Shown one piece after another: positions 6,314 to 39,288 of a DNA stretch of 64,000 nucleotides. A model generated the notes under the pieces. That model did not search any database and was not told the origin of the DNA. It was given only the letters and a program-made list of their open reading frames with translations. Numbering within the stretch: position 1 is the stretch's first letter; each line of letters starts with the position of its first letter. A program made the translations under genes and the position numbers. The stretch is from NCBI RefSeq assembly GCF_034044635.1, contig NZ_JAXCLX010000002.1, positions 558,001 through 622,000 on the forward strand. The letters are read 5' to 3'. This DNA is from Dongia rigui (lineage in GTDB: Bacteria > Pseudomonadota > Alphaproteobacteria > Dongiales > Dongiaceae).

Positions 6314-7387
6314 TTAGGGCGCAATCGCCACTTTCAGCACGCCGTCGCGTTGATGCGCGAACAGGTCGTAGGCGGCTTCGATGTCATCGAGCTTGAAGCG
6401 GTGCGTCACCAGCGGCTTCAAATCCAGTCGCTCCGACTTGATGACTTCCATCAGCCGGCGCATGCGCTCCTTCCCGCCTGGGCACAACGTGGTGATGATC
6501 TTATGATCGCCCAGGCCCGCGGCAAAGGCGCCCAAGGGAATGGTGAGATCGCTGGAATAGACGCCAAGGCTTGAGAGTGTGCCCCCCGGACGCAAGACGC
6601 TGAGGCATGCCTGGAACGTCGCCTGGGTTCCCAGCGCTTCGATGGCGACATCGACGCCCCGGCCATTGGTGATCTGCATGATCGCCTCGACCGGATCCGT
6701 CTCGCGGAAATTGACGACATGGTCGGCACCCATATGCCGCGCGATCTCCAAACGCTTGGCGATGCTGTCGACGGCGATGATTGTGGTAGCGCCGGACAGC
6801 TTGGCGCCCGCCGTGGCGCAGAGGCCGATCGGTCCTTGGGCGAAAACGGCGACGACATCGCCAATGCGCACCTTGCCGCTCTCGGCGCCGCTGAAGCCGG
6901 TCGACATGATGTCCGGGCACATCAAGACCTGCTCGTCGCTGAGGCCATCCGGCACCGGCGCCAGATTGGCCATGGCATCCGGCACCAGAACATATTCGGC
7001 TTGCGCGCCGTCGATGGTGTTGCCGAACTTCCAGCCGCCGATCGGTTTCCAGCCATGGGCCGTGCCGGCACCGTCCTGGGAATGGCAGCCGCACAACGAC
7101 GCGTTGCTGTGGCCGCTGGGTGTGATGGCGCCGGCGATGACGCGCTGGCCTTCCTGATAGCCTTGCACGGCCGACCCCAGTTTCTCGATGATGCCGACCG
7201 GTTCATGGCCGACGGTCAGGCCTTTGCGGACCGGGTACTCGCCCTTGAGGATATGGACATCCGTGCCGCAAATCGTCGTCGTGGTGATCCGAATCAGCGC
7301 GTCGAGCGGGCCCACATCGGGTATGGGCTTCTCATCGAGCACAATCCGGCCCGGTTCCACGAAAATGGCGGCTTTCATCTTGGCCAT
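6314..7387 (-). CDS. Zinc-dependent medium-chain alcohol dehydrogenase
   Basis: A 357-residue NAD(P)-dependent alcohol dehydrogenase, cytoplasmic. Catalytic zinc ligands can be assigned as Cys40 (TICGTD), His61 (GHEPVG) and Asp159 (CPDIMSTGF), the Cys-His-Asp set of the isopropanol/TbADH-like subfamily; GGWKFGNTIDG also matches that group. The four-cysteine structural-zinc loop is absent, as in that subfamily. The Rossmann motif is around VFAQGPIGLCA. The start ATG at 7387 follows GGAGAAG. The substrate is unknown; secondary alcohols or short primary alcohols are possible. It converges on the livJ terminator. Confidence 0.85.
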   Translation of the reverse strand: MAKMKAAIFVEPGRIVLDEKPIPDVGPLDALIRITTTTICGTDVHILKGEYPVRKGLTVGHEPVGIIEKLGSAVQGYQEGQRVIAGAITPSGHSNASLCGCHSQDGAGTAHGWKPIGGWKFGNTIDGAQAEYVLVPDAMANLAPVPDGLSDEQVLMCPDIMSTGFSGAESGKVRIGDVVAVFAQGPIGLCATAGAKLSGATTIIAVDSIAKRLEIARHMGADHVVNFRETDPVEAIMQITNGRGVDVAIEALGTQATFQACLSVLRPGGTLSSLGVYSSDLTIPLGAFAAGLGDHKIITTLCPGGKERMRRLMEVIKSERLDLKPLVTHRFKLDDIEAAYDLFAHQRDGVLKVAIAP

Positions 7388-28207: not shown

Positions 28208-28284
28208 CGGAGCGTGGCGCAGCCTGGTAGCGCACTAGACTGGGGGTCTAGGGGTCGCAGGTTCAAATCCTGTCGCTCCGACCA
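28208..28284 (+). tRNA. tRNA-Pro (anticodon GGG)
   Basis: A 77-base cloverleaf with acceptor arms CGGAGCG and CGCTCCG, discriminator A and encoded CCA (28282-28284). The anticodon stem CTAGA/TCTAG encloses the loop CTGGGGG, giving anticodon GGG. The T arm contains GGTTCAAATCC. The 3' part from 28237 on is repeated exactly at 39239-39288, which shows that an integrated element rebuilt this end. Confidence 0.96.
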
Positions 28285-28286
28285 TT
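28237..28286 (+). repeat. attL: left 50-bp attachment repeat inside tRNA-Pro
   Basis: This 50-base block, from the anticodon stem to two bases past CCA, is identical to 39239-39288. Sequence differs on both sides (T before the left copy, G before the right; A after the left, T after the right). It is the left crossover site of the integrated element. Confidence 0.93.
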
Positions 28287-28675
28287 ATTTCAATGCCTTA
28301 CACTGCGCCTCGACCGACCTGGACGGTTAAATCCGCGTCGAGGGTAACAGTGTGGGTAACGGTGAGAAAAAAGACGACGTAAGCCCTTGAGGCTTGGCAG
28401 TGCGAACCGCGTTTGCATCAGTGCCTGTTCGAGTCGACAGAGGCGTTGATCATTGTCATCACACTTGCGGTCGGAACAGACAATGGTGGCTCGCATTCAG
28501 GTTGTGTTAGTTGCTCCTTTCAAGGTGCTGAAAATACGTTTTTTTCTAGAATCCTAGATCTGCGGTGGGCGCTAACACATTGATAAATTTAAGTCTCTGA
28601 TTGGCACGTGTTGCATTTTGCAATACACTTAGCAGTATGTAGCGTGCCAAGTTTTGGGGGGGCAGGATGCTCAAC
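28287..28675. other. Non-coding left end of the element
   Basis: No convincing gene is present. A 13-base inverted repeat TTGCA-TTT-TGCAA sits at 28611-28623, about 50 bases before the DprA-like gene, and could be an operator. TGGCAC then GTG then TTGC (28602-28614) looks like a sigma-54 element but with a spacer two bases too short. The AT-rich stretch 28530-28600 probably includes the cargo promoter. Confidence 0.5.
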
Positions 28676-29440
28676 ATGGCAGTTAAAAGAAGGGCACAAC
28701 GCCCTCCCCAATCTGATCGATATCTCGGACCGCAGGATACTGAAACACGGTCCTTGGCGGAGTTACTTACTTACGCGGGCCGTTCTGCGAGTTCTGCAAA
28801 GTCGGAAGATTTGTTTAAAACGCCGTCGGACCCCGACGGGGCGAAGAACCTTGCCATTCATTACGCGGGCGATCTGAGCCTGCTTAAGCGGCCATGTGTT
28901 GCCATCGTAGGCACGAGAAAGGTTTCGCCGGCAGGCGCCGCTCGCGCTCGCCGTTTGGCCAGAGAGTTGGTTGAAAGGGGCGTGGTTGTCGTGTCCGGCC
29001 TCGCCACCGGCGTGGATGCTAACGCCCATTCCAGCGCTTTGGAGGCGGGCGGCCGTACTATCGCCGTTATTGGCACTCCGCTCGATAAGGCCTATCCGGC
29101 TGAGAATGCCTGGCTGCAACAGGAAATCTATAACCATCATCTTCTGGTCAGCCAGTTCGATGTTGGGAGCCGCGTATTTCCGGCTAACTTCCCCAGGCGC
29201 AATAAGGTGATGGCAGCGCTGAGCGATGCCACCGTCATTATTGAAGCTTCGGATTCGTCCGGCACCCTTCACCAAGCCGCTGAGTGCGTGCGGCTTGGTA
29301 GATGGCTCTTCATCGCTCGCTCCGCCGTGGAGGATCCCGGTTTGAAATGGCCCAAGTCGTTCTTGGACCAACCGAGGACCGCCGTTCTGGATCGTGTAGA
29401 TGATATCGTGAGAGCCATCGGCCATGAGCAGACCAATTAA
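28676..29440 (+). CDS. DprA/SMF-like (SLOG superfamily) protein, first gene of a putative defence trio
   Basis: A 254-residue protein with a DprA-type Rossmann fold: AIVGTR (76-81), SGLATGVDANAH (107-118), VIGTPLDKAYPAEN (131-144), FPRRNKVMAALS (172-183) and EASDSSGTLHQA (190-201). DprA itself loads RecA on single-stranded DNA during transformation, but this copy lacks the usual N-terminal SAM and C-terminal winged-helix regions and is on a mobile element, so a nucleotide-sensing role is more likely. The ATG at 28676 has AGGA 8 bases upstream; ATG 28667 is the alternative. It overlaps the next gene by 17 bases. Confidence 0.8.
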   Translation: MAVKRRAQRPPQSDRYLGPQDTETRSLAELLTYAGRSASSAKSEDLFKTPSDPDGAKNLAIHYAGDLSLLKRPCVAIVGTRKVSPAGAARARRLARELVERGVVVVSGLATGVDANAHSSALEAGGRTIAVIGTPLDKAYPAENAWLQQEIYNHHLLVSQFDVGSRVFPANFPRRNKVMAALSDATVIIEASDSSGTLHQAAECVRLGRWLFIARSAVEDPGLKWPKSFLDQPRTAVLDRVDDIVRAIGHEQTN

Positions 29441-30110
29441 AGTCTGGTCGCTTCTATATTATCTCGCGGAAGTCGAAGGACTGACTTGGCGCGGCGTTGA
29501 CTACACCACCAACAAGATGATCAAGGCGATGAAGGGGAAGCCTATCAAAGGCTACCTAAATCTAAAAGTTGGCGGTCAAAATAAAACCTTCAATCAGCAG
29601 AACGTGACCGAACTCGTCGCCGTGATGAGACAGGAAGTAGCGCGGAAGCTGAAAAGCTCGGTAGCAGATAAGTTCTGCATTGTGCCCATTCCGAATTCTT
29701 CCGCCGTCTCATCGTCCGACGACGAATTTCGTACCTACGCTGACGCCAAGGCTATTGCCGCGGGCCTTGGAGAAAGCGCGTGCGCCGTCTCTTCGCTCAG
29801 ATGGAAGACGGCATTGAAGCCAGCACACGAAGGTGGCTCAAGGGATCCCAGCTTTCTCTTCGACAATCTAGTGGTGATGGAGAAACCGAAGGGCCCCGTT
29901 GTTCTCTATGATGACGTACAGACCACCGGGAGCCACATGGTCGCGTGCTACCGGAAACTCGAAGAAATAGGATTCCCTCCTATTTTGGGCATCGTGGTGG
30001 GCCGTGCGATCAAAGAACAAAGAGACCCAGCAATTGGCTGGCATGACGAAGATGTCGAGACGGAAGAGGTCGCCTTCGACTGGGACGCTTTTTTCAAAAC
30101 TGAGATCTGA
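29424..30110 (+). CDS. Phosphoribosyltransferase-like protein, second gene of the trio
   Basis: A 228-residue protein with a type I phosphoribosyltransferase PRPP loop, VVLYDDVQTTGSH (159-171), and an upstream FCIVPIPNSSAVSSS that fits the PPi loop. Following PRPP-loop rules, D163/D164 and T167-S170 would bind PRPP. The N-terminal 80 residues are not recognised. Overlap with the DprA-like gene and a 23-base gap to the SIR2-like gene indicate one operon. The reaction is unknown; it may make or recycle a nucleotide signal. Confidence 0.78.
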   Translation: MSRPIKVWSLLYYLAEVEGLTWRGVDYTTNKMIKAMKGKPIKGYLNLKVGGQNKTFNQQNVTELVAVMRQEVARKLKSSVADKFCIVPIPNSSAVSSSDDEFRTYADAKAIAAGLGESACAVSSLRWKTALKPAHEGGSRDPSFLFDNLVVMEKPKGPVVLYDDVQTTGSHMVACYRKLEEIGFPPILGIVVGRAIKEQRDPAIGWHDEDVETEEVAFDWDAFFKTEI

Positions 30111-30133
30111 TCTCTATTGGGGCCGGGATCAAC

Positions 30134-31201
30134 TTGAGCGAAATTGTTTTCATCCTCGGGGCTGGAGCTTCGGTGCCGGCCGGTGCCCCAATAATGAGCG
30201 ACTTCCTTGATCGAGCTCGTGATATCTGGGCCGATCCACATAGGGTAGTTGCCGAAGATGTGCCGCATTATCAGCGGGTCTTTAATGCCCTTCAGGTCCT
30301 GCAAGCTGTGCACTCAAAGTCCAACCTCGATTTGGTGAACATCGAGAGTGTGTTCACCCTTCTGGAGATGGCTGAATTACTTCAAAGAATGCCGGGGAAT
30401 TTCGAGAACCCAGGCGACGCTCTTAGCAGCTTGAAGAAGGTCATTGCGGCGACGTTGTCGGCATCTGTGAGATTTCCTGTCGCGAATCGCGGAATTGGGC
30501 AAGCCGCGGGGTATGCCGGCTTCGTGGATATGTTGCAGCGGATTGGTGAGATCGACCGGGGCAGACACAGCATTTCTGTCGTCACTTTCAACTACGATCT
30601 GGGCCTGGACTTCTCGTTGCTTGGAAGAGGCATACAGTACGGGTTGGGAGAGGAGCAACGACAAGGGGTGCCAGTCTTCAAGCTCCATGGCTCACTTAAC
30701 TGGGTCTCTAAAGAAGAAACGGGCGAGGTCATCCCTCTGATGCCGGACGCCCTCATGCGAACGATCGACCCTCTTCGATGGGTCGGTGAAGAGACAGTTC
30801 CGCTTAACTTTTATGCCAATCTTAAGACATCGGCTGCCGAAATTGGGATTGCTGGCGTTTCCTCTGATCCGGTCATCGTGCCGCCAACATGGAAGAAAGG
30901 TGAGCATCAACGCTCACTCGCCCGCGTCTGGCAAGGCGCTGCAATGCACTTGAATGAAGCGCAGTACATATTCGTTTGTGGGTACTCTTTGCCGGAGACT
31001 GACGGGTTCTTTAAAATGCTCTATGCCTTGGGCACTGCAGGGGGGCAGCCACTGCGCACTTTCCACGTACTGGATCCAGATCCGAACGTGGATCAACGCT
31101 TTCGAGCGCTGCTAGGACCTGGTGCACAAGGTCGTTACCGGTATCAGCAGGGCTTCTTCGAAGATCTGCCTGGAACGGTCCTTAGATATTTCGGTCAGTG
31201 A
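30134..31201 (+). CDS. SIR2-like protein, third gene of the trio
   Basis: A 355-residue protein with SIR2 fold signs: Gly-rich FILGAGASVPAGAP at residues 6-19, TFNYDLGLDFS with N153, and FKLHGSLNW with candidate catalytic His185, as seen in SIR2-type NAD-degrading defence effectors. The C-terminal half (VPPTWKK, FVCGYSLPETDGFF) also matches that class. The start is TTG at 30134, supported by the Gly-rich loop immediately after. Its stop overlaps the next small gene as GTGA. NADase activity is inferred. Confidence 0.82.
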   Translation: MSEIVFILGAGASVPAGAPIMSDFLDRARDIWADPHRVVAEDVPHYQRVFNALQVLQAVHSKSNLDLVNIESVFTLLEMAELLQRMPGNFENPGDALSSLKKVIAATLSASVRFPVANRGIGQAAGYAGFVDMLQRIGEIDRGRHSISVVTFNYDLGLDFSLLGRGIQYGLGEEQRQGVPVFKLHGSLNWVSKEETGEVIPLMPDALMRTIDPLRWVGEETVPLNFYANLKTSAAEIGIAGVSSDPVIVPPTWKKGEHQRSLARVWQGAAMHLNEAQYIFVCGYSLPETDGFFKMLYALGTAGGQPLRTFHVLDPDPNVDQRFRALLGPGAQGRYRYQQGFFEDLPGTVLRYFGQ

Positions 31202-31401
31202 CCTCGCCGATCGACATCATGCGCTGCGCGAAGCTGCTCTGCGACCAGTACGGCGCCGAGGCGGATCTGATCGCGGCCGTGCGCGCCGATCGGCTGCTGG
31301 AGCAGGGCGAACTCGACGGCTACGCAACTTGGAAGGCGATCTTGCGGGCGATTGTCGACATTCGATCTCAAACTCCGCGCGACGGCCAATCGGTCCACTA
31401 G
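31198..31401 (+). CDS. Small DUF6961-like protein coupled to the SIR2-like gene
   Basis: A 67-residue protein starting with GTG that overlaps the SIR2-like stop (GTGA). The run CAKLLCDQYGAEADLIAAVR followed by LLEQGELDGYATWKAILRAI resembles my memory of DUF6961, a small alphaproteobacterial family of unknown function often found on mobile elements. Composition returns to high GC here, unlike the trio, so it may be an independent cargo gene despite the overlap. Confidence 0.55.
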   Translation: MTSPIDIMRCAKLLCDQYGAEADLIAAVRADRLLEQGELDGYATWKAILRAIVDIRSQTPRDGQSVH

Positions 31402-31422: not shown

Positions 31423-31794
31423 ATGAACAAACGAGAGTTTGCATTTGCGTGTGCCGATGTTGTCTTGGTCGTCATAGTGCTCGTCTGGATGCTGCGCGAT
31501 GGACCAACCAAAGATGCGGTCATCGGGGTGATGACGGTACTCGGAGCCGTACTCGCGTTTGTGTCTGCGGCCATATGGGAAAAGTCGGCCCGGGTTCCAG
31601 TGGAGACAGGGCTGCCAACAGATTCTGACGGCAATGTGTTCATGGGGCATCTAAATCTCAACGCCAAGATAATGGAACTGGACGCGTTGATGCGGGCCGC
31701 CAAAGCCGCCAATCGCTTGAATAGCATTGCCGCACGTTTCGCCGGAGCGTCCGCCGCCGTGTTTTTTTTGATTGCGGTCCTTTCCGCCCTCTAG
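31423..31794 (+). CDS. Small membrane protein, unknown function
   Basis: A 123-residue protein with two hydrophobic segments in the first 55 residues (VVLVVIVLVWML and VIGVMTVLGAVLAFVSAAIW), a soluble middle, and a third segment at the C-terminus (ASAAVFFLIAVLSAL). No family recognised. It is 21 bases after the previous small gene and in the same orientation as the SIR2-like operon. Confidence 0.6.
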   Translation: MNKREFAFACADVVLVVIVLVWMLRDGPTKDAVIGVMTVLGAVLAFVSAAIWEKSARVPVETGLPTDSDGNVFMGHLNLNAKIMELDALMRAAKAANRLNSIAARFAGASAAVFFLIAVLSAL

Positions 31795-34103: not shown

Positions 34104-35213
34104 TTAGCTCGCCGGTATGAACGGCAGATCCGGGAAGATGCCGTCAACAAGGACGACCGCCGCCGGTGTAATCGGTTTCCACGCGATGCGTCGAATCATC
34201 CGCAAGGCAATTAAATTGCTCTGCCACAAACTCACCATCGTACGGCCGGCGGCGGCGGCCGCATTCTGGCCAGGATCATCTCTCATTTCGACAGCACCTT
34301 GCTCGGAGGCCTTGAAATCACCGCCATCGGTGGTAACGGCGATTAGGCCGGGGTCTATAACGACGATTTTGAATTCGGTCGGTAGTTCGCTTGAGCCAAG
34401 ATCCGGAACTCGCAGTGGAGATGCATTCGAAGTCACAACGGAAACGCCACCGATGTCGCCACCGTTGACGCCAACGTTTTCGTACTTCGATCCACCGCGG
34501 TTGTGCAGAAAGAAGGCCAGGATTGGATTTAGCAGGATGCAGAGCCGCTTCGCATCGCCACCCTGTATGACAGCTGTGGCAATGGAGGTAACGATGGCCC
34601 GGTCGATGTCTTCGATATCGCCACTACCTACTGTTATTGGTGTGATGCCGTTCGTAATCGCTGCTGGGATCACGCCAGGGGTGCCTGAATTGGCGGCGTC
34701 GAGAAAAGCGATGTCGATCGCGTCTGACGTTGTGCGAATCAGATCACTTTGAAACTGTTCTTCGCCTTCGACTGTTTCAGCTCTTACCGCTTCAATTGTT
34801 TCCACGGTCAGGCTCGCGACCTTTAAAGGCACAATCGTACTAGGCTGAAAGTCACCTCGAATCAGAGGAATGCCACCGCCTTCGCCAACGAACGCGCCGA
34901 CTGAGGCCGACGCATTTAGGACAGTACGAACGCGCGGCGCTACGCGGCGAAGACCTGGCATTTGTCCCAGAACCGACCGTCGATCGCCGAGTTCAAAAAA
35001 CTCCTCTTGCTGACCTCGGACGTCTGCTGATAGGCCGGACTCGCTTGTCGCGGCGCCGACCATCGCCTTGACGATCCCGAAAGCACGGCTGCTCTGTCCG
35101 TAATTGTTTGCCGCATCGTGCAACGCCTCATTCAGATCGCCCTTCGCGCGCATCATGGCGAGCATGGCCCGAACAACGGCCCGGCCTTTCCCTTCGACCC
35201 TAAAGACCGTCAT
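34104..35213 (-). CDS. HK97-type phage major capsid protein
   Basis: A 369-residue protein with HK97 fold signs: an E-loop-like stretch (VLNASASVGAFVGEGGGIPL), a spine-helix region (TVEGEEQFQSDLIRTTSDAI), a P-domain LNPILAFFLHN and a C-terminal VSLWQSNLIALRMIRRIAWK that is standard for phage capsid proteins. The first 90 residues are helical and could be a short scaffold-like domain. No adjacent protease gene was found. It would form shells, perhaps with helper-phage proteins. Confidence 0.8.
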   Translation of the reverse strand: MTVFRVEGKGRAVVRAMLAMMRAKGDLNEALHDAANNYGQSSRAFGIVKAMVGAATSESGLSADVRGQQEEFFELGDRRSVLGQMPGLRRVAPRVRTVLNASASVGAFVGEGGGIPLIRGDFQPSTIVPLKVASLTVETIEAVRAETVEGEEQFQSDLIRTTSDAIDIAFLDAANSGTPGVIPAAITNGITPITVGSGDIEDIDRAIVTSIATAVIQGGDAKRLCILLNPILAFFLHNRGGSKYENVGVNGGDIGGVSVVTSNASPLRVPDLGSSELPTEFKIVVIDPGLIAVTTDGGDFKASEQGAVEMRDDPGQNAAAAAGRTMVSLWQSNLIALRMIRRIAWKPITPAAVVLVDGIFPDLPFIPAS

Positions 35214-35292
35214 CTCTTGCCTCTTCCAAGCTCTCTGGTTGCAGCGAATGATGCAATCGACTCATGCAACATGAAAGGAACGATCGGGAACA

Positions 35293-35607
35293 TCATTCTT
35301 GTTCGGTGTTGCGGCCAATGAACTCGACAATGCTAGAGATCCGCACGTACCGATATCGCCCGCGACGAAAGGTCCGAAGAAGCTCATCAAGTTGCGTGCG
35401 CCGGTTTTGAAGTGTTTTGATACTTAGCCTACACAATGTCGCGGCATCTTTTTCAGACACGGCGTCACGACCTTCCGGCGCGATCACCGTCGCCATCTCC
35501 TGCTCCAGGATCTCGGCCCTAAGTTTCGCTTCGATCAACGCCCGGCTATCAGGCACCGGCAAACCCTCCGCTAAGGCGGCAAATGGGCATCCTTGGCACA
35601 TCCTCAT
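35293..35607 (-). CDS. Putative DNA-binding protein
   Basis: A 104-residue protein with an N-terminal CQGCPF cluster and a C-terminal helix-turn-helix-like run (AATLCRLSIKTLQNRRTQLD) followed by a wing-like RRGRYRYVRISSIVEFI, as in MerR/AlpA-type excisionases and phage regulators. Its start overlaps the stop of the putative small terminase gene (ATGA). The function could be packaging or regulation. Confidence 0.5.
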   Translation of the reverse strand: MRMCQGCPFAALAEGLPVPDSRALIEAKLRAEILEQEMATVIAPEGRDAVSEKDAATLCRLSIKTLQNRRTQLDELLRTFRRGRYRYVRISSIVEFIGRNTEQE

Positions 35608-35951
35608 TTCCGCCCCCTTCCGTCGCTGGCTAAACCAAGTGCGCGAGCAAGCTTCCCGACCAAGGCGGTCGTGCGATCGACCGCTGATGCTGTCGCGATG
35701 AACGACTTGGCTGTTGATCCGCAGCAGTGAGATCGGGCGGCCTCCGCGGCAGCACGGTCAAACAATGCCTGCAGTTGGCTCAAGCGCTTGCGCGCAAGGA
35801 TCAGCGACACCACATCGTCAATTTCGGCGGGCATAACGGGCCGATTCAATGCAGTTCGCTGCCTGCAAATGCGCCGAAACTGCATTTTTCCGTCCACATC
35901 GAGCGCAGCCGGCGGCGAGATGCGCGCGGATCTATTGGGTTTCTGGGCCAT
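35604..35951 (-). CDS. Putative phage terminase small subunit (P27-like)
   Basis: A 115-residue protein. The layout (PPAALDVDGKMQFRRICRQR, then EIDDVVSLILARKRLSQLQA, then a C-terminal LVGKLARALGLASDGRGRK) fits the P27 family of small terminases, which end in a helix followed by LGL and a basic tail. No large subunit is encoded nearby. Satellites use a private small subunit to direct packaging of their own DNA. Similarity is by pattern only. Confidence 0.5.
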   Translation of the reverse strand: MAQKPNRSARISPPAALDVDGKMQFRRICRQRTALNRPVMPAEIDDVVSLILARKRLSQLQALFDRAAAEAARSHCCGSTAKSFIATASAVDRTTALVGKLARALGLASDGRGRK

Positions 35952-36103
35952 CAATCGAATCTCCACAAAAAAGCAGCGGCCGGCCGGAAAAAATTTCCGC
36001 AAGAAATTGGTGGGTGTCGCCGGATTCGCGCAGTGTGTCTTCCGAGGTCCCCCCGGTCTCAGCACTCAGCCGTCGTCATCGTCATCGTCATTCCTGTCGG
36101 TAC

Positions 36104-36517
36104 TTAGGCATCACCTTCTTCATCGGACGACGCGTCTGTCGCGTCGTAATGTGGGCTGTTGAAGATGGGCTGTTCTTTAGGCTGTTTAGATTGGCTGTTA
36201 TCTACGGCGACACGCAGATGTCGCTTTGGAATGTCCCGCATGTCGTTTTCAGGTCGCCGCCTTGTCGCTTTGTCCAGGACACCAGACGTCGTTATTGAAG
36301 GCACAAATCGAGAGAGGGAAACGACGTCTCGTGGCGTGTTTGGATTCGAAGGTGCGACGATGTTAACGACGGGTCGTGCCGCTTCTGTAAATCGCGGTGC
36401 GACTATGTGTACGACAGTCCGTGTCGTTTCTAAGGGCCGGGGCGCGACTATGTGTATGACAGTCCGTGTCGTTTTCGATGAGGATAGGACCTCAGGAGAT
36501 TTGGTATCGTCTTTCAT
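36104..36517 (-). CDS. Repeat-containing protein of unknown function
   Basis: A 137-residue protein whose first half contains three copies of a 15-residue unit around VxxIVAP (residues 17-27, 31-42, 47-56) plus a degenerate fourth. At DNA level two 31-base copies (36399-36429 and 36444-36474) differ by one base, with a 45-base period, so the expansion looks recent. The second half is polar and acidic at its end. Its start overlaps the helix-turn-helix gene by four bases. Confidence 0.55.
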   Translation of the reverse strand: MKDDTKSPEVLSSSKTTRTVIHIVAPRPLETTRTVVHIVAPRFTEAARPVVNIVAPSNPNTPRDVVSLSRFVPSITTSGVLDKATRRRPENDMRDIPKRHLRVAVDNSQSKQPKEQPIFNSPHYDATDASSDEEGDA

Positions 36518-36888
36518 GTTTCCGTGTCTTCGTGTCCTTGTGAACTTCCAAGCTGGTCGGCGGACGCGTCAGCATCTGAATGGGGGCGGACTTCGGCATC
36601 ATCCACCTCTGGATAGAGGACGGATAAGAACCGCCTTCGATAACCTAGAGAGGTATCGAACCCCTGTTCTTTGCGAAGATAACCGAGATCGATAAGCCGC
36701 TTGACGTGACGCTGAATTGATCGCCGATGCAAACCAAGATCTTGAGCAAGGCGCTCGGTGGATACCCAGCAAGTTCCCTTGCGATTGACGTAGATCGCTA
36801 TGGCACACAGGGCACGCAGGTCATCACCACTCAATCGACGATCGGATACGGCGGCTGCAGGAAGACGGGCGAAACGGCCCGTCATCAC
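36514..36888 (-). CDS. Helix-turn-helix protein, replication-initiator-like
   Basis: A 124-residue protein with a winged helix of the type found in phage and satellite replication proteins: CWVSTERLAQDLGLHRRSIQ, then RHVKRLIDLGYLRKEQG. It overlaps both neighbours by four bases (ATGA), showing tight coupling between the AlpA-like gene and the repeat protein. A replication or regulatory role is inferred. Confidence 0.65.
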   Translation of the reverse strand: MMTGRFARLPAAAVSDRRLSGDDLRALCAIAIYVNRKGTCWVSTERLAQDLGLHRRSIQRHVKRLIDLGYLRKEQGFDTSLGYRRRFLSVLYPEVDDAEVRPHSDADASADQLGSSQGHEDTET

Positions 36889-37139
36889 AGAGCCCCCTTG
36901 ACCTTGTCGTTCGGGTGGATGCCTTCGGCCTTGTCGACAGTACTTTGTAACGACTGTGCGTTGTTCAGGCGTGACCTAACCCAAATATCAACTTCGTCCG
37001 CATTGAATGCGACGCTGTTCGGGCCAAGTCGGATGCTGGCGGGAAAGCCATTGGCACGCTGCCAACGAGCAAGCGTGACGCGATTTGTAACAATCTTTCT
37101 TGCGACCAAATCTGGATATCGGTAAAGGCGCATCGCCAT
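36885..37139 (-). CDS. AlpA-like excisionase/regulator
   Basis: An 84-residue protein. RYPDLVARKIVTNRVTLARWQR, then ANGFPASIRLGPNSVAFNADEVDIWVRSRL, is the AlpA/prophage regulator pattern of a MerR-type helix-turn-helix and a wing ending in a W-containing helix. AlpA proteins switch integrase or satellite genes. It is the first small gene after the 188-residue gene. Confidence 0.72.
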   Translation of the reverse strand: MAMRLYRYPDLVARKIVTNRVTLARWQRANGFPASIRLGPNSVAFNADEVDIWVRSRLNNAQSLQSTVDKAEGIHPNDKVKGAL

Positions 37140-37814: not shown

Positions 37815-39065
37815 TTATGAGGCCTTCCGCGTCAACGACGTGACGTTGGATATTGGCGAAATGAGATTTGAGACGTGATTTGCCCACGCGTCAAAAGCAT
37901 GGCGCTTTTCGTCTTCATACTCGAAAACGTCGTAGACGCGCTGGATGCCTCCTGGCACATGAGCTATACACCGCTCGGCAATGTGAGGCTCGATCCTAAG
38001 GCGCGAGAGGCCGCTGCGGAAGGTCCGGCGCAGGTCGTGCAAGCGCCAGTCCAGCATTGGTTTGGCTTCGGGGTTGGTCTCCTGGCGAGCCGCTAGGATC
38101 GCGACATCTAGCTGGATCTTCAATTTATTGAATCCACTAATCGGCGCATCGCCGCGGCGGCCGGTGCTGAACACATAGGTTGGCGTACTTTCGAGCGCAG
38201 CCACATCGTCGAGCACACCCAGCGCAAACCGAGATAGCGGGACTACATGGGCCTGCCTAGCCTTCATGCGCTGGGGCGGAAGGACCCAAAGATTGCGGTC
38301 TCGATCGATCTCGACATGCCTCATGTCCGAGACTTCCCGTCGGCGCTGGCCGGTGAGGAGCAAAAGGCGCACAAAACCCTGGAAGGCGTTGGCCAGCTTT
38401 TCGGTCGCCTGCCATACCTCCCTCAGCTCGGCATCGGTCAGGATCCTCTGACGATCGGCTTCCGGGAGCATCTTGATCCGGGCGGCGACGTTGGCGTCCA
38501 GCAGCTCGCGGTCCAGAGCGAAATTCAGCATATGCCGGATCAGTGCAAGCCGGCGGTTCCGAGCATAGACACCCTTCTCGGCCTCGATCTGGTCGAGAAG
38601 GGCCATGACCTTGCCTCGGGATAAGTCCCGAATGGGCGTGTTTTTCCAGGCCGGATTAAGATCGGCCTCAATGCCGTGATCCCAGAGGCCCTGGCCGGAG
38701 CTGATCTTGTCCAGGTGAGAGGTCTTGTAGGTCTCAGCAAACACCGCGAATGTGTCCGCTCGGCGCTTGGCCTCTTGGGCGATCTGTCGGGCGGCTACAT
38801 GCCGGGGGTCCTGGCCCGTCTCGACCAGCTGCAATCGGTCCCTGGCATCCGCCCGGGCTTCAGCCAGGCTTTTCGCCGGGTACCTGCCGATCACATCCCG
38901 CACCAGCTTGCCGTCTATCCGGTAAAATACAAACCAGCTGGCGGCTCCGGTCGACGAGAGCCGGATGCCGAAGGCGGGGAGCGTGAGGTCGAAATAGTCG
39001 ATTCGGCCGTCGGCCGGTGCCTTGAGGCTCTTTAGGGTGAGCTCAGTCAGCTTTTTACGCGGCAT
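37815..39065 (-). CDS. int: P4-type tyrosine integrase
   Basis: A 416-residue integrase with an N-terminal DUF4102 domain (LTLKSLKAPADGRIDYFDLT) and a C-terminal catalytic domain. Active-site parts seen are Arg in LLTGQRRREVSDM, His-x-x-Arg in LHDLRRTF, His in CIAHVPGG and the nucleophile Tyr in RVYDVFEYEDEKRHAF. It lies 173 bases from attR and should catalyse insertion at tRNA-Pro. Confidence 0.93.
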   Translation of the reverse strand: MPRKKLTELTLKSLKAPADGRIDYFDLTLPAFGIRLSSTGAASWFVFYRIDGKLVRDVIGRYPAKSLAEARADARDRLQLVETGQDPRHVAARQIAQEAKRRADTFAVFAETYKTSHLDKISSGQGLWDHGIEADLNPAWKNTPIRDLSRGKVMALLDQIEAEKGVYARNRRLALIRHMLNFALDRELLDANVAARIKMLPEADRQRILTDAELREVWQATEKLANAFQGFVRLLLLTGQRRREVSDMRHVEIDRDRNLWVLPPQRMKARQAHVVPLSRFALGVLDDVAALESTPTYVFSTGRRGDAPISGFNKLKIQLDVAILAARQETNPEAKPMLDWRLHDLRRTFRSGLSRLRIEPHIAERCIAHVPGGIQRVYDVFEYEDEKRHAFDAWANHVSNLISPISNVTSLTRKAS

Positions 39066-39238: not shown

Positions 39239-39288
39239 AGACTGGGGGTCTAGGGGTCGCAGGTTCAAATCCTGTCGCTCCGACCATT
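39239..39288 (+). repeat. attR: right 50-bp attachment repeat
   Basis: Identical over 50 bases to 28237-28286. This is the displaced original 3' piece of tRNA-Pro. It ends the element; it is not a functional tRNA because the 5' half is missing. Confidence 0.93.

What the first reader, a model, noticed from the sequence alone, without database searches (positions are those of the whole stretch)
28676..31401. DprA-like, phosphoribosyltransferase and SIR2-like operon: candidate anti-phage system
Seen directly: three genes with a 17-bp overlap, a 23-bp gap and a GTGA overlap to a fourth small gene, on an integrated element. Known: SIR2-like proteins with the HGSLNW motif act as NAD-depleting effectors in several defence systems, SLOG/DprA folds bind nucleotides, and PRTases make nucleotide products. 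Inference: a phage signal could make the PRTase/SLOG pair produce or sense a nucleotide and trigger the SIR2 effector. I cannot match this trio to a system I can name with certainty.
Basis: partly seen in the sequence, partly recalled or inferred. Interest (0 to 1): 0.85.

Follow-up and report, generated by a model that had tools for sequence, protein, structure and literature searches.

The report
ShosTA-like defence pair beside SIR2 gene
Two of the three genes look like a toxin-antitoxin pair of an already described anti-phage kind, and the third, a predicted NAD-destroying enzyme, was seen beside such a pair only here, so it is more likely a second defence gene carried on the same mobile element than part of a new three-gene system.

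Summary
The trio can be partly named. A and B match PADLOC ShosA (2.7e-71) and ShosT (6.9e-10): a ShosTA-like DprA/PRTase pair. B is only 228 residues, without the long N-terminal part of the ShosT whose structure is solved. Its model is confident and its PRPP loop intact. Of 158 other loci with a ShosA-like DprA, 137 have a PRTase beside it on the same strand; a SIR2 gene was found in none. Conversely, no DprA or PRTase was found in 13 loci around relatives of C. N153 and H185 of C are kept in two relatives, so C is probably a working NADase, but as a neighbour. A coupled ShosTA-SIR2 unit peculiar to this lineage is not excluded.

The parts
28667..29440 (+). A: DprA-like protein (257 aa), ShosA-like antitoxin candidate
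   Evidence: PADLOC ShosA 2.7e-71; Pfam DNA_processg_A 1.9e-53; solved ShosA 9vzo 7e-20
29424..30110 (+). B: single-domain phosphoribosyltransferase (228 aa), ShosT-like toxin candidate
   Evidence: PADLOC ShosT 6.9e-10; AlphaFold model pLDDT 95.4; PRPP loop D163 D164 T167 G169 kept in 48, 47, 46, 48 of 48 sequences
30134..31201 (+). C: SIR2-family protein (355 aa), predicted NADase; neighbour of the pair
   Evidence: N153 and H185, invariant in the 3-sequence alignment; profile match to solved SIR2 proteins 9.9e-8
31198..31401 (+). D: small protein (67 aa), function unknown, probably unrelated to C
   Evidence: a 43% relative lies in L134, which has no SIR2 hit; GC3 82.4 against 57.6 for C; DUF6961 only 0.0054, below cut-off
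31423..31794 (+). E: small, probably membrane protein (123 aa; hydrophobic stretches judged by eye), function unknown
   Evidence: no relative in the held loci other than the window's own DNA
28237..28286 (.). left 50-bp repeat (att site), overlapping the end of tRNA-Pro
39239..39288 (.). right 50-bp repeat (att site)
37815..39065 (-). tyrosine integrase of the element
   Evidence: phrog_1 1.1e-43; Pfam Phage_integrase 7e-11

Best explanation
Two defence modules lie in tandem on an integrated, satellite-like element. Module 1 (A+B) is a ShosTA-like toxin-antitoxin pair: B binds PRPP and acts as the toxin by disturbing nucleotide metabolism, A (DprA-like) binds DNA and restrains or counteracts B, and infection tips the balance. 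Shown here: conservation and order of the pair, and an intact PRPP loop. Inferred from relatives: toxicity, neutralisation and trigger. B has only the PRTase part, so any published ShosT activity that depends on its other part cannot be assumed. Module 2 (C) is a SIR2-family NADase that would lower NAD+ on infection; its catalytic residues are shown, its activity and trigger are inferred. The two modules may be co-transcribed but probably work separately.
For: PADLOC ShosA and ShosT matches. DprA with PRTase on the same strand in 138 of 159 loci, window included, DprA first in 138 of 138. Confident PRTase-like model, with ShosT+PRPP (8zvc) among its Foldseek hits at E 4.1e-4. PRPP-loop conservation. 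SIR2 only in the window among 159 loci. No DprA or PRTase in 13 loci around relatives of C. Other downstream genes are different: of six downstream ORFs from five loci scanned, one is Panacea-like (L053), one Fic (L134), four unnamed. Published: a DprA+PRTase system protects against T7 and lambda (PMC9122126 passages); ShosTA mechanism as told in a review passage (PMC12593503).
Against: A, B and C share a low GC3 (60.9, 60.7, 57.6 against 78-85 in four host genes) and no terminator-like site was seen on the + strand, so they may have arrived and be transcribed together. The ShosT match of B is weak (37 bits). The survey holds best matches only and some loci are cut short or duplicated. One paper's passage lists ShosTA among families underrepresented in defence islands (PMC10924106). 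Every functional step is inferred.
Confidence: 0.75

Rival explanations
1. Tripartite system: A and B sense infection or make a nucleotide product that switches on C, which depletes NAD+.
For: Tight spacing on one strand; similar GC3 of A, B and C; no + strand terminator-like site between B and C; C is a bare SIR2 protein without an obvious sensor of its own among the element ORFs scanned.
Against: No SIR2 in 158 other loci with a ShosA-like DprA, including L131 and L134, whose PRTases are nearest to B at 47%; no DprA or PRTase in 13 loci around relatives of C.
Confidence: 0.1
2. C works with D and perhaps E as a separate small SIR2 system, with the DprA-PRTase pair independent.
For: C and D overlap by 4 bp and E follows 21 bp after D.
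Against: D and E gave no hit in the loci around relatives of C. A relative of D lies in L134, which has no SIR2. D differs in GC3 (82.4 against 57.6; D has only 67 codons).
Confidence: 0.1
3. A and B serve DNA uptake (DprA and ComF-like PRTase), not defence.
For: The best Foldseek hit of B is Helicobacter ComF (E 1.5e-7, query TM-score only 0.41); A is of the DprA family (below the equivalog cut-off).
Against: The host has another DprA-like frame elsewhere, 37% identical; the pair lies on a mobile element and relatives of A occur in 78 viral-contig loci; A scores higher with ShosA (238 bits) than with dprA (159 bits).
Confidence: 0.03

Closest known systems
ShosTA (DprA-like ShosA plus PRTase ShosT)
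   Same: DprA-like gene followed at once by a PRTase gene with an intact PRPP loop, on a mobile element; PADLOC models of both parts match.
   Different: The ShosT of P2-like phage P24C9 (424 aa) matches PADLOC PDLC03012 at 973 bits and the solved ShosT chains are 432-447 residues; B is 228 aa and does not match PDLC03012. In a long relative (L049, 415 aa) the PRPP loop aligns near residues 316-357 (probability 67%), so B lacks a long N-terminal part. A SIR2 gene follows.
RqlHI (PsyrTA-like; helicase with PRTase domain plus DprA-like RqlI)
   Same: DprA-like partner of a PRTase; in RqlH the PRTase domain is the toxic part and changes in its PRPP pocket abolish the effect (PMC4670107 passages).
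   Different: No helicase domain in B; A matches PsyrA less well (2e-30) than ShosA (2.7e-71).
SIR2 NADase defence proteins (Nezha/SIR2-HerA, pAgo-linked SIR2, Thoeris ThsA, DSR)
   Same: C keeps the N and H positions and weakly matches Aga_SIR2 and other SIR2 models.
   Different: No HerA, Piwi or TIR family appeared in the element ORFs scanned, and C has no fused extra domain recognised; two Hymenobacter relatives of C do sit beside Piwi genes.

Membership tests
ShosTA | DprA-like antitoxin gene | tested here: met
   PADLOC ShosA 2.7e-71
ShosTA | Adjacent PRTase toxin gene with PRPP-binding loop | tested here: met
   17-bp overlap; PADLOC ShosT 6.9e-10; loop residues kept; model
ShosTA | Long ShosT with an extra N-terminal part, as in the solved ShosT (a feature of the studied examples; the shorter PADLOC model PDLC03962 also matches single-domain proteins) | tested here: not met
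   B is 228 aa, no match to PDLC03012; solved chains 432-447 residues. Hence filed as ShosTA-like, single-domain branch
ShosTA | Toxicity of the PRTase, neutralisation by the DprA protein, phage protection | not testable with these tools
   needs bench work
SIR2 NADase | GAG motif, catalytic N and H | tested here: met
   GAGAS at 9, N153, H185; N and H invariant in 3 sequences
SIR2 NADase | Curated SIR2 family cut-off reached by the single sequence | tested here: not met
   Pfam SIR2_2 12.7 bits against 24.5; NCBIfam SIR2_antiphage 30.8 against 500
SIR2 NADase | NAD+ hydrolysis on infection | not testable with these tools
   needs bench work
Thoeris | SIR2-SLOG fusion (ThsA) with TIR protein (ThsB) | tested here: not met
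   SIR2 and SLOG/DprA are separate proteins; no TIR family in the element ORFs scanned
SIR2-HerA or pAgo-associated SIR2 | HerA or Piwi partner gene beside SIR2 | tested here: not met
   none in the element ORFs scanned
Proposed DprA-PRTase-SIR2 system | Co-occurrence of the three genes in unrelated genomes | tested here: not met
   0 of 158 other ShosA-like loci; 0 of 13 loci around relatives of C

The most novel reading that the evidence does not exclude
In this lineage a ShosTA-like pair has captured a SIR2 NADase as a third, co-regulated effector, so that one DprA sensor controls two killers: nucleotide disturbance by the PRTase and NAD+ depletion by SIR2. The single-domain PRTase could influence the SIR2 by changing PRPP or NAD-precursor pools.
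Probability: 0.1. Interest if true: 0.6.

Novelty: new member of a known kind. Interest (0 to 1): 0.25.

Why it matters
It replaces a guessed new system by a testable statement: the DprA-PRTase pair is a widespread unit, in this survey mostly with a short PRTase, while the SIR2 gene looks like local cargo. The short branch matters in itself, because the solved ShosT structures concern a much longer toxin; whether the PRTase alone is toxic would show which part the defence needs.

Tried and rejected
Tried with little gain: (1) pattern scans with C in genome and viral contigs and with B in viral contigs found no relatives; such scans from one protein reach close relatives only. (2) A genome search with PDLC03962 rang in 388 of 398 genomes and in 13 of 14 control genomes; only two matches were strong (2.7e-53 and 8.3e-48), so it was not used for counts. 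(3) The structure model of C from one sequence was useless (mean pLDDT 39.3) and no fold search was run on it. (4) Relatives of the capsid-like gene, sought to compare cargo slots between related elements, gave none in viral contigs and only the own genome among 17 in the order. (6) phmmer of C against solved structures gave two matches at E 0.1 and 0.62; the profile did better.

Limits of the counts: the 158 loci are the best 80 of 316 genome relatives plus the 78 viral relatives. Many are cut by contig ends, and some are the same DNA in both collections (L120 and L177, for example). Of the 21 loci without a same-strand PRTase within 400 bases, six have a PRTase on the opposite strand meeting the DprA end (one of these, L057, also has a tandem one further on); the other 15 were not studied further. 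Some of the PRTase ORFs are fragments (shortest 59 aa). Of the relatives of C found, the 13 loci leave out Hymenobacter monticola (H3) and G080, and some of the 13 are cut by contig ends. Only six downstream ORFs from five loci were given to a family search.

Considered and rejected: Thoeris, SIR2-HerA, pAgo-SIR2 and DNA uptake (see membership table and rivals). The AlpA-like frame (36885-37139) was named by eye and given to no family search. Paper searches for DprA with SIR2 or PRTase (2, 6 and 8 papers) showed no title or seen passage that describes this trio. Passages were seen in three of those papers (PMC9122126, PMC7824862, PMC11878078); the other listed papers were not opened, and the library holds open-licence papers only.

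Full report
Observation. The four genes and their spacing are as described: A 28667-29440, B 29424-30110 (17-bp overlap), C 30134-31201 (23-bp gap, TTG start), D 31198-31401 (GTGA overlap), all on the + strand, followed by E 31423-31794. They lie at the left end of an element bounded by perfect 50-bp repeats (28237-28286, 39239-39288), the left one overlapping the end of tRNA-Pro, with an integrase at 37815-39065. The element has less G+C (57.0%) than the flanks (62.8 and 60.5%).

What A and B are. A matches PADLOC ShosA at 2.7e-71 and B matches ShosT at 6.9e-10. A is of the DprA family by Pfam (1.9e-53), and a solved chain named ShosA (9vzo) is among its PDB matches (7e-20), though ordinary DprA chains match better (3uqz, 4.9e-31). 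B has no Pfam family above cut-off and no phmmer match to a solved chain, but an AlphaFold model on a 48-sequence alignment is confident (mean pLDDT 95.4, pTM 0.90). Foldseek places it with ComF, adenine and orotate PRTases and ShosT with PRPP (8zvc, rank 9, E 4.1e-4, rmsd 3.0); TM-scores are modest (0.31-0.45 by query among the first 50). The PRPP-loop residues D163, D164, T167 and G169 are kept in 48, 47, 46 and 48 of 48 sequences. The host has another DprA-like frame elsewhere, 37% identical to A.

The pair is a conserved unit. An alignment of four ShosA-like DprA proteins was used to scan genome contigs (316 relatives, best 80 kept) and viral contigs (78). Of these 158 loci plus the window, 138 of 159 have a PRTase on the same strand within 400 bases, with DprA first in 138 of 138. 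By record title the loci come from Alphaproteobacteria, other Proteobacteria, Bacteroidota, Planctomycetota, archaea and others. An independent search with B in 385 genomes of the class found 7 with a match, the own genome included; DprA lies beside it in three of the other six (L008, L009, L011).

The SIR2 gene was not found in that unit elsewhere. An iterated profile from C and its Cohnella relative found one SIR2 gene in the 159 loci, the window's own. A motif scan agreed: besides the window it gave two partial hits (L100, L182), both in frames that span the DprA match of those loci. The Hymenobacter relatives sit beside Piwi genes and the Cohnella one after a NUDIX gene. C is uncommon: 4 of 385 genomes of the class match at E 0.001, the own genome included, and 5 of 72,556 plasmid records. 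It had no match in 50,697 phage records. The genes after the pair vary: of six downstream ORFs from five loci given to Pfam, one is Panacea-like (L053), one Fic (L134) and four are unnamed; several loci have no co-directional ORF close behind. That is what a cargo slot would give.

What C probably does. C has GAGAS at residue 9, N153 and H185; N153 and H185 are invariant in the three-sequence alignment, in which the Curtobacterium protein is aligned over part of the length only. The profile of that alignment matches solved SIR2-family proteins (8yhx, 8w9l, 8j4u; best 9.9e-8). NADase activity is therefore likely by family (SIR2-like proteins of other defence systems deplete NAD+, for instance Nezha, PMC11559045, abstract and outline seen), but the trigger is unknown. 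The structure model of C failed.

How it most likely works. For ShosTA, a review states that ShosT acts as phosphoribosyltransferase and pyrophosphatase, disturbs the purine pool, and causes DNA duplications, filamentation and death; that ShosA binds DNA and counteracts this; and that T7 Gp0.7 is a trigger (PMC12593503, passage, citing Pu et al. 2025, which was not held). A DprA+PRTase system from P2-like phages protects against T7 and lambda (PMC9122126, passages). In the related RqlHI pair the PRTase domain is the toxic part and PRPP-pocket changes abolish the effect (PMC4670107, passages). The window pair keeps the DprA and the PRTase loop but not the long N-terminal part of the ShosT of P2-like phage P24C9 (424 aa) and of the solved chains (432-447 residues, matched by the long relative in L049). 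So a PRTase-based toxin held by a DprA-like antitoxin is the best reading, and the pyrophosphatase activity should not be carried over without a test. Short PRTases dominate this branch: 135 of 138 adjacent PRTase ORFs are 274 aa or shorter (a few are fragments).

Against this reading. A, B and C share a low GC3 (60.9, 60.7, 57.6 against 78-85 for four host genes). No terminator-like site was found on the + strand between 28290 and 32300, and the two promoter-like sites found there are no more than chance gives. The three genes may therefore be one transcript and may have arrived together, and a lineage-specific coupling cannot be excluded. The ShosT match of B is weak (37 bits). One paper's passage lists ShosTA among families underrepresented in defence islands (PMC10924106). 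The survey is limited to best matches and includes duplicates and cut loci. All functional steps are inferred.

Verdict. The DprA-PRTase pair is a new member of a known kind (ShosTA-like, short-PRTase branch), next to a SIR2-type gene.

Noticed in passing
L056, L057, L058, L137, L141 (3' ends of the DprA genes; for example L057 5740-6291 -): A ShosA-like DprA (54-62% identical to A in four of the five loci, 55% in L137) meets a PRTase of about 183-220 aa on the opposite strand with overlapping ends; the one in L057 matches Pfam Pribosyltran, and L057 also has a tandem PRTase at 6406-7104. A convergent toxin-antitoxin layout would be unusual.
   Followed up: partly
window 34104-37139 -: The 11-kb element carries a phage-type major head protein (phrog_617, 4.3e-12), a replication-initiation-like HTH protein (phrog_270; HTH_36) and an AlpA-like frame (36885-37139, named by eye), but no terminase or portal family in the ORFs scanned: it looks like a capsid-bearing phage satellite.
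   Followed up: partly
L002 5388-7092: The only close full-length relative of C found (36.5% identity, Cohnella herbarum plasmid) follows a NUDIX gene; whether these two form a unit was not examined.
   Followed up: no
L222 3928-6813 -: Two adjacent frames (593 and 358 aa) both fit a loose SIR2-like motif scan, and the second also matches the SIR2 profile (2.1e-9): a possible paired SIR2 locus.
   Followed up: no
L134 1906-2079 -: A 43% relative of the small protein D lies in a viral contig that also carries a DprA-PRTase pair, about 3 kb away and on the other strand.
   Followed up: no
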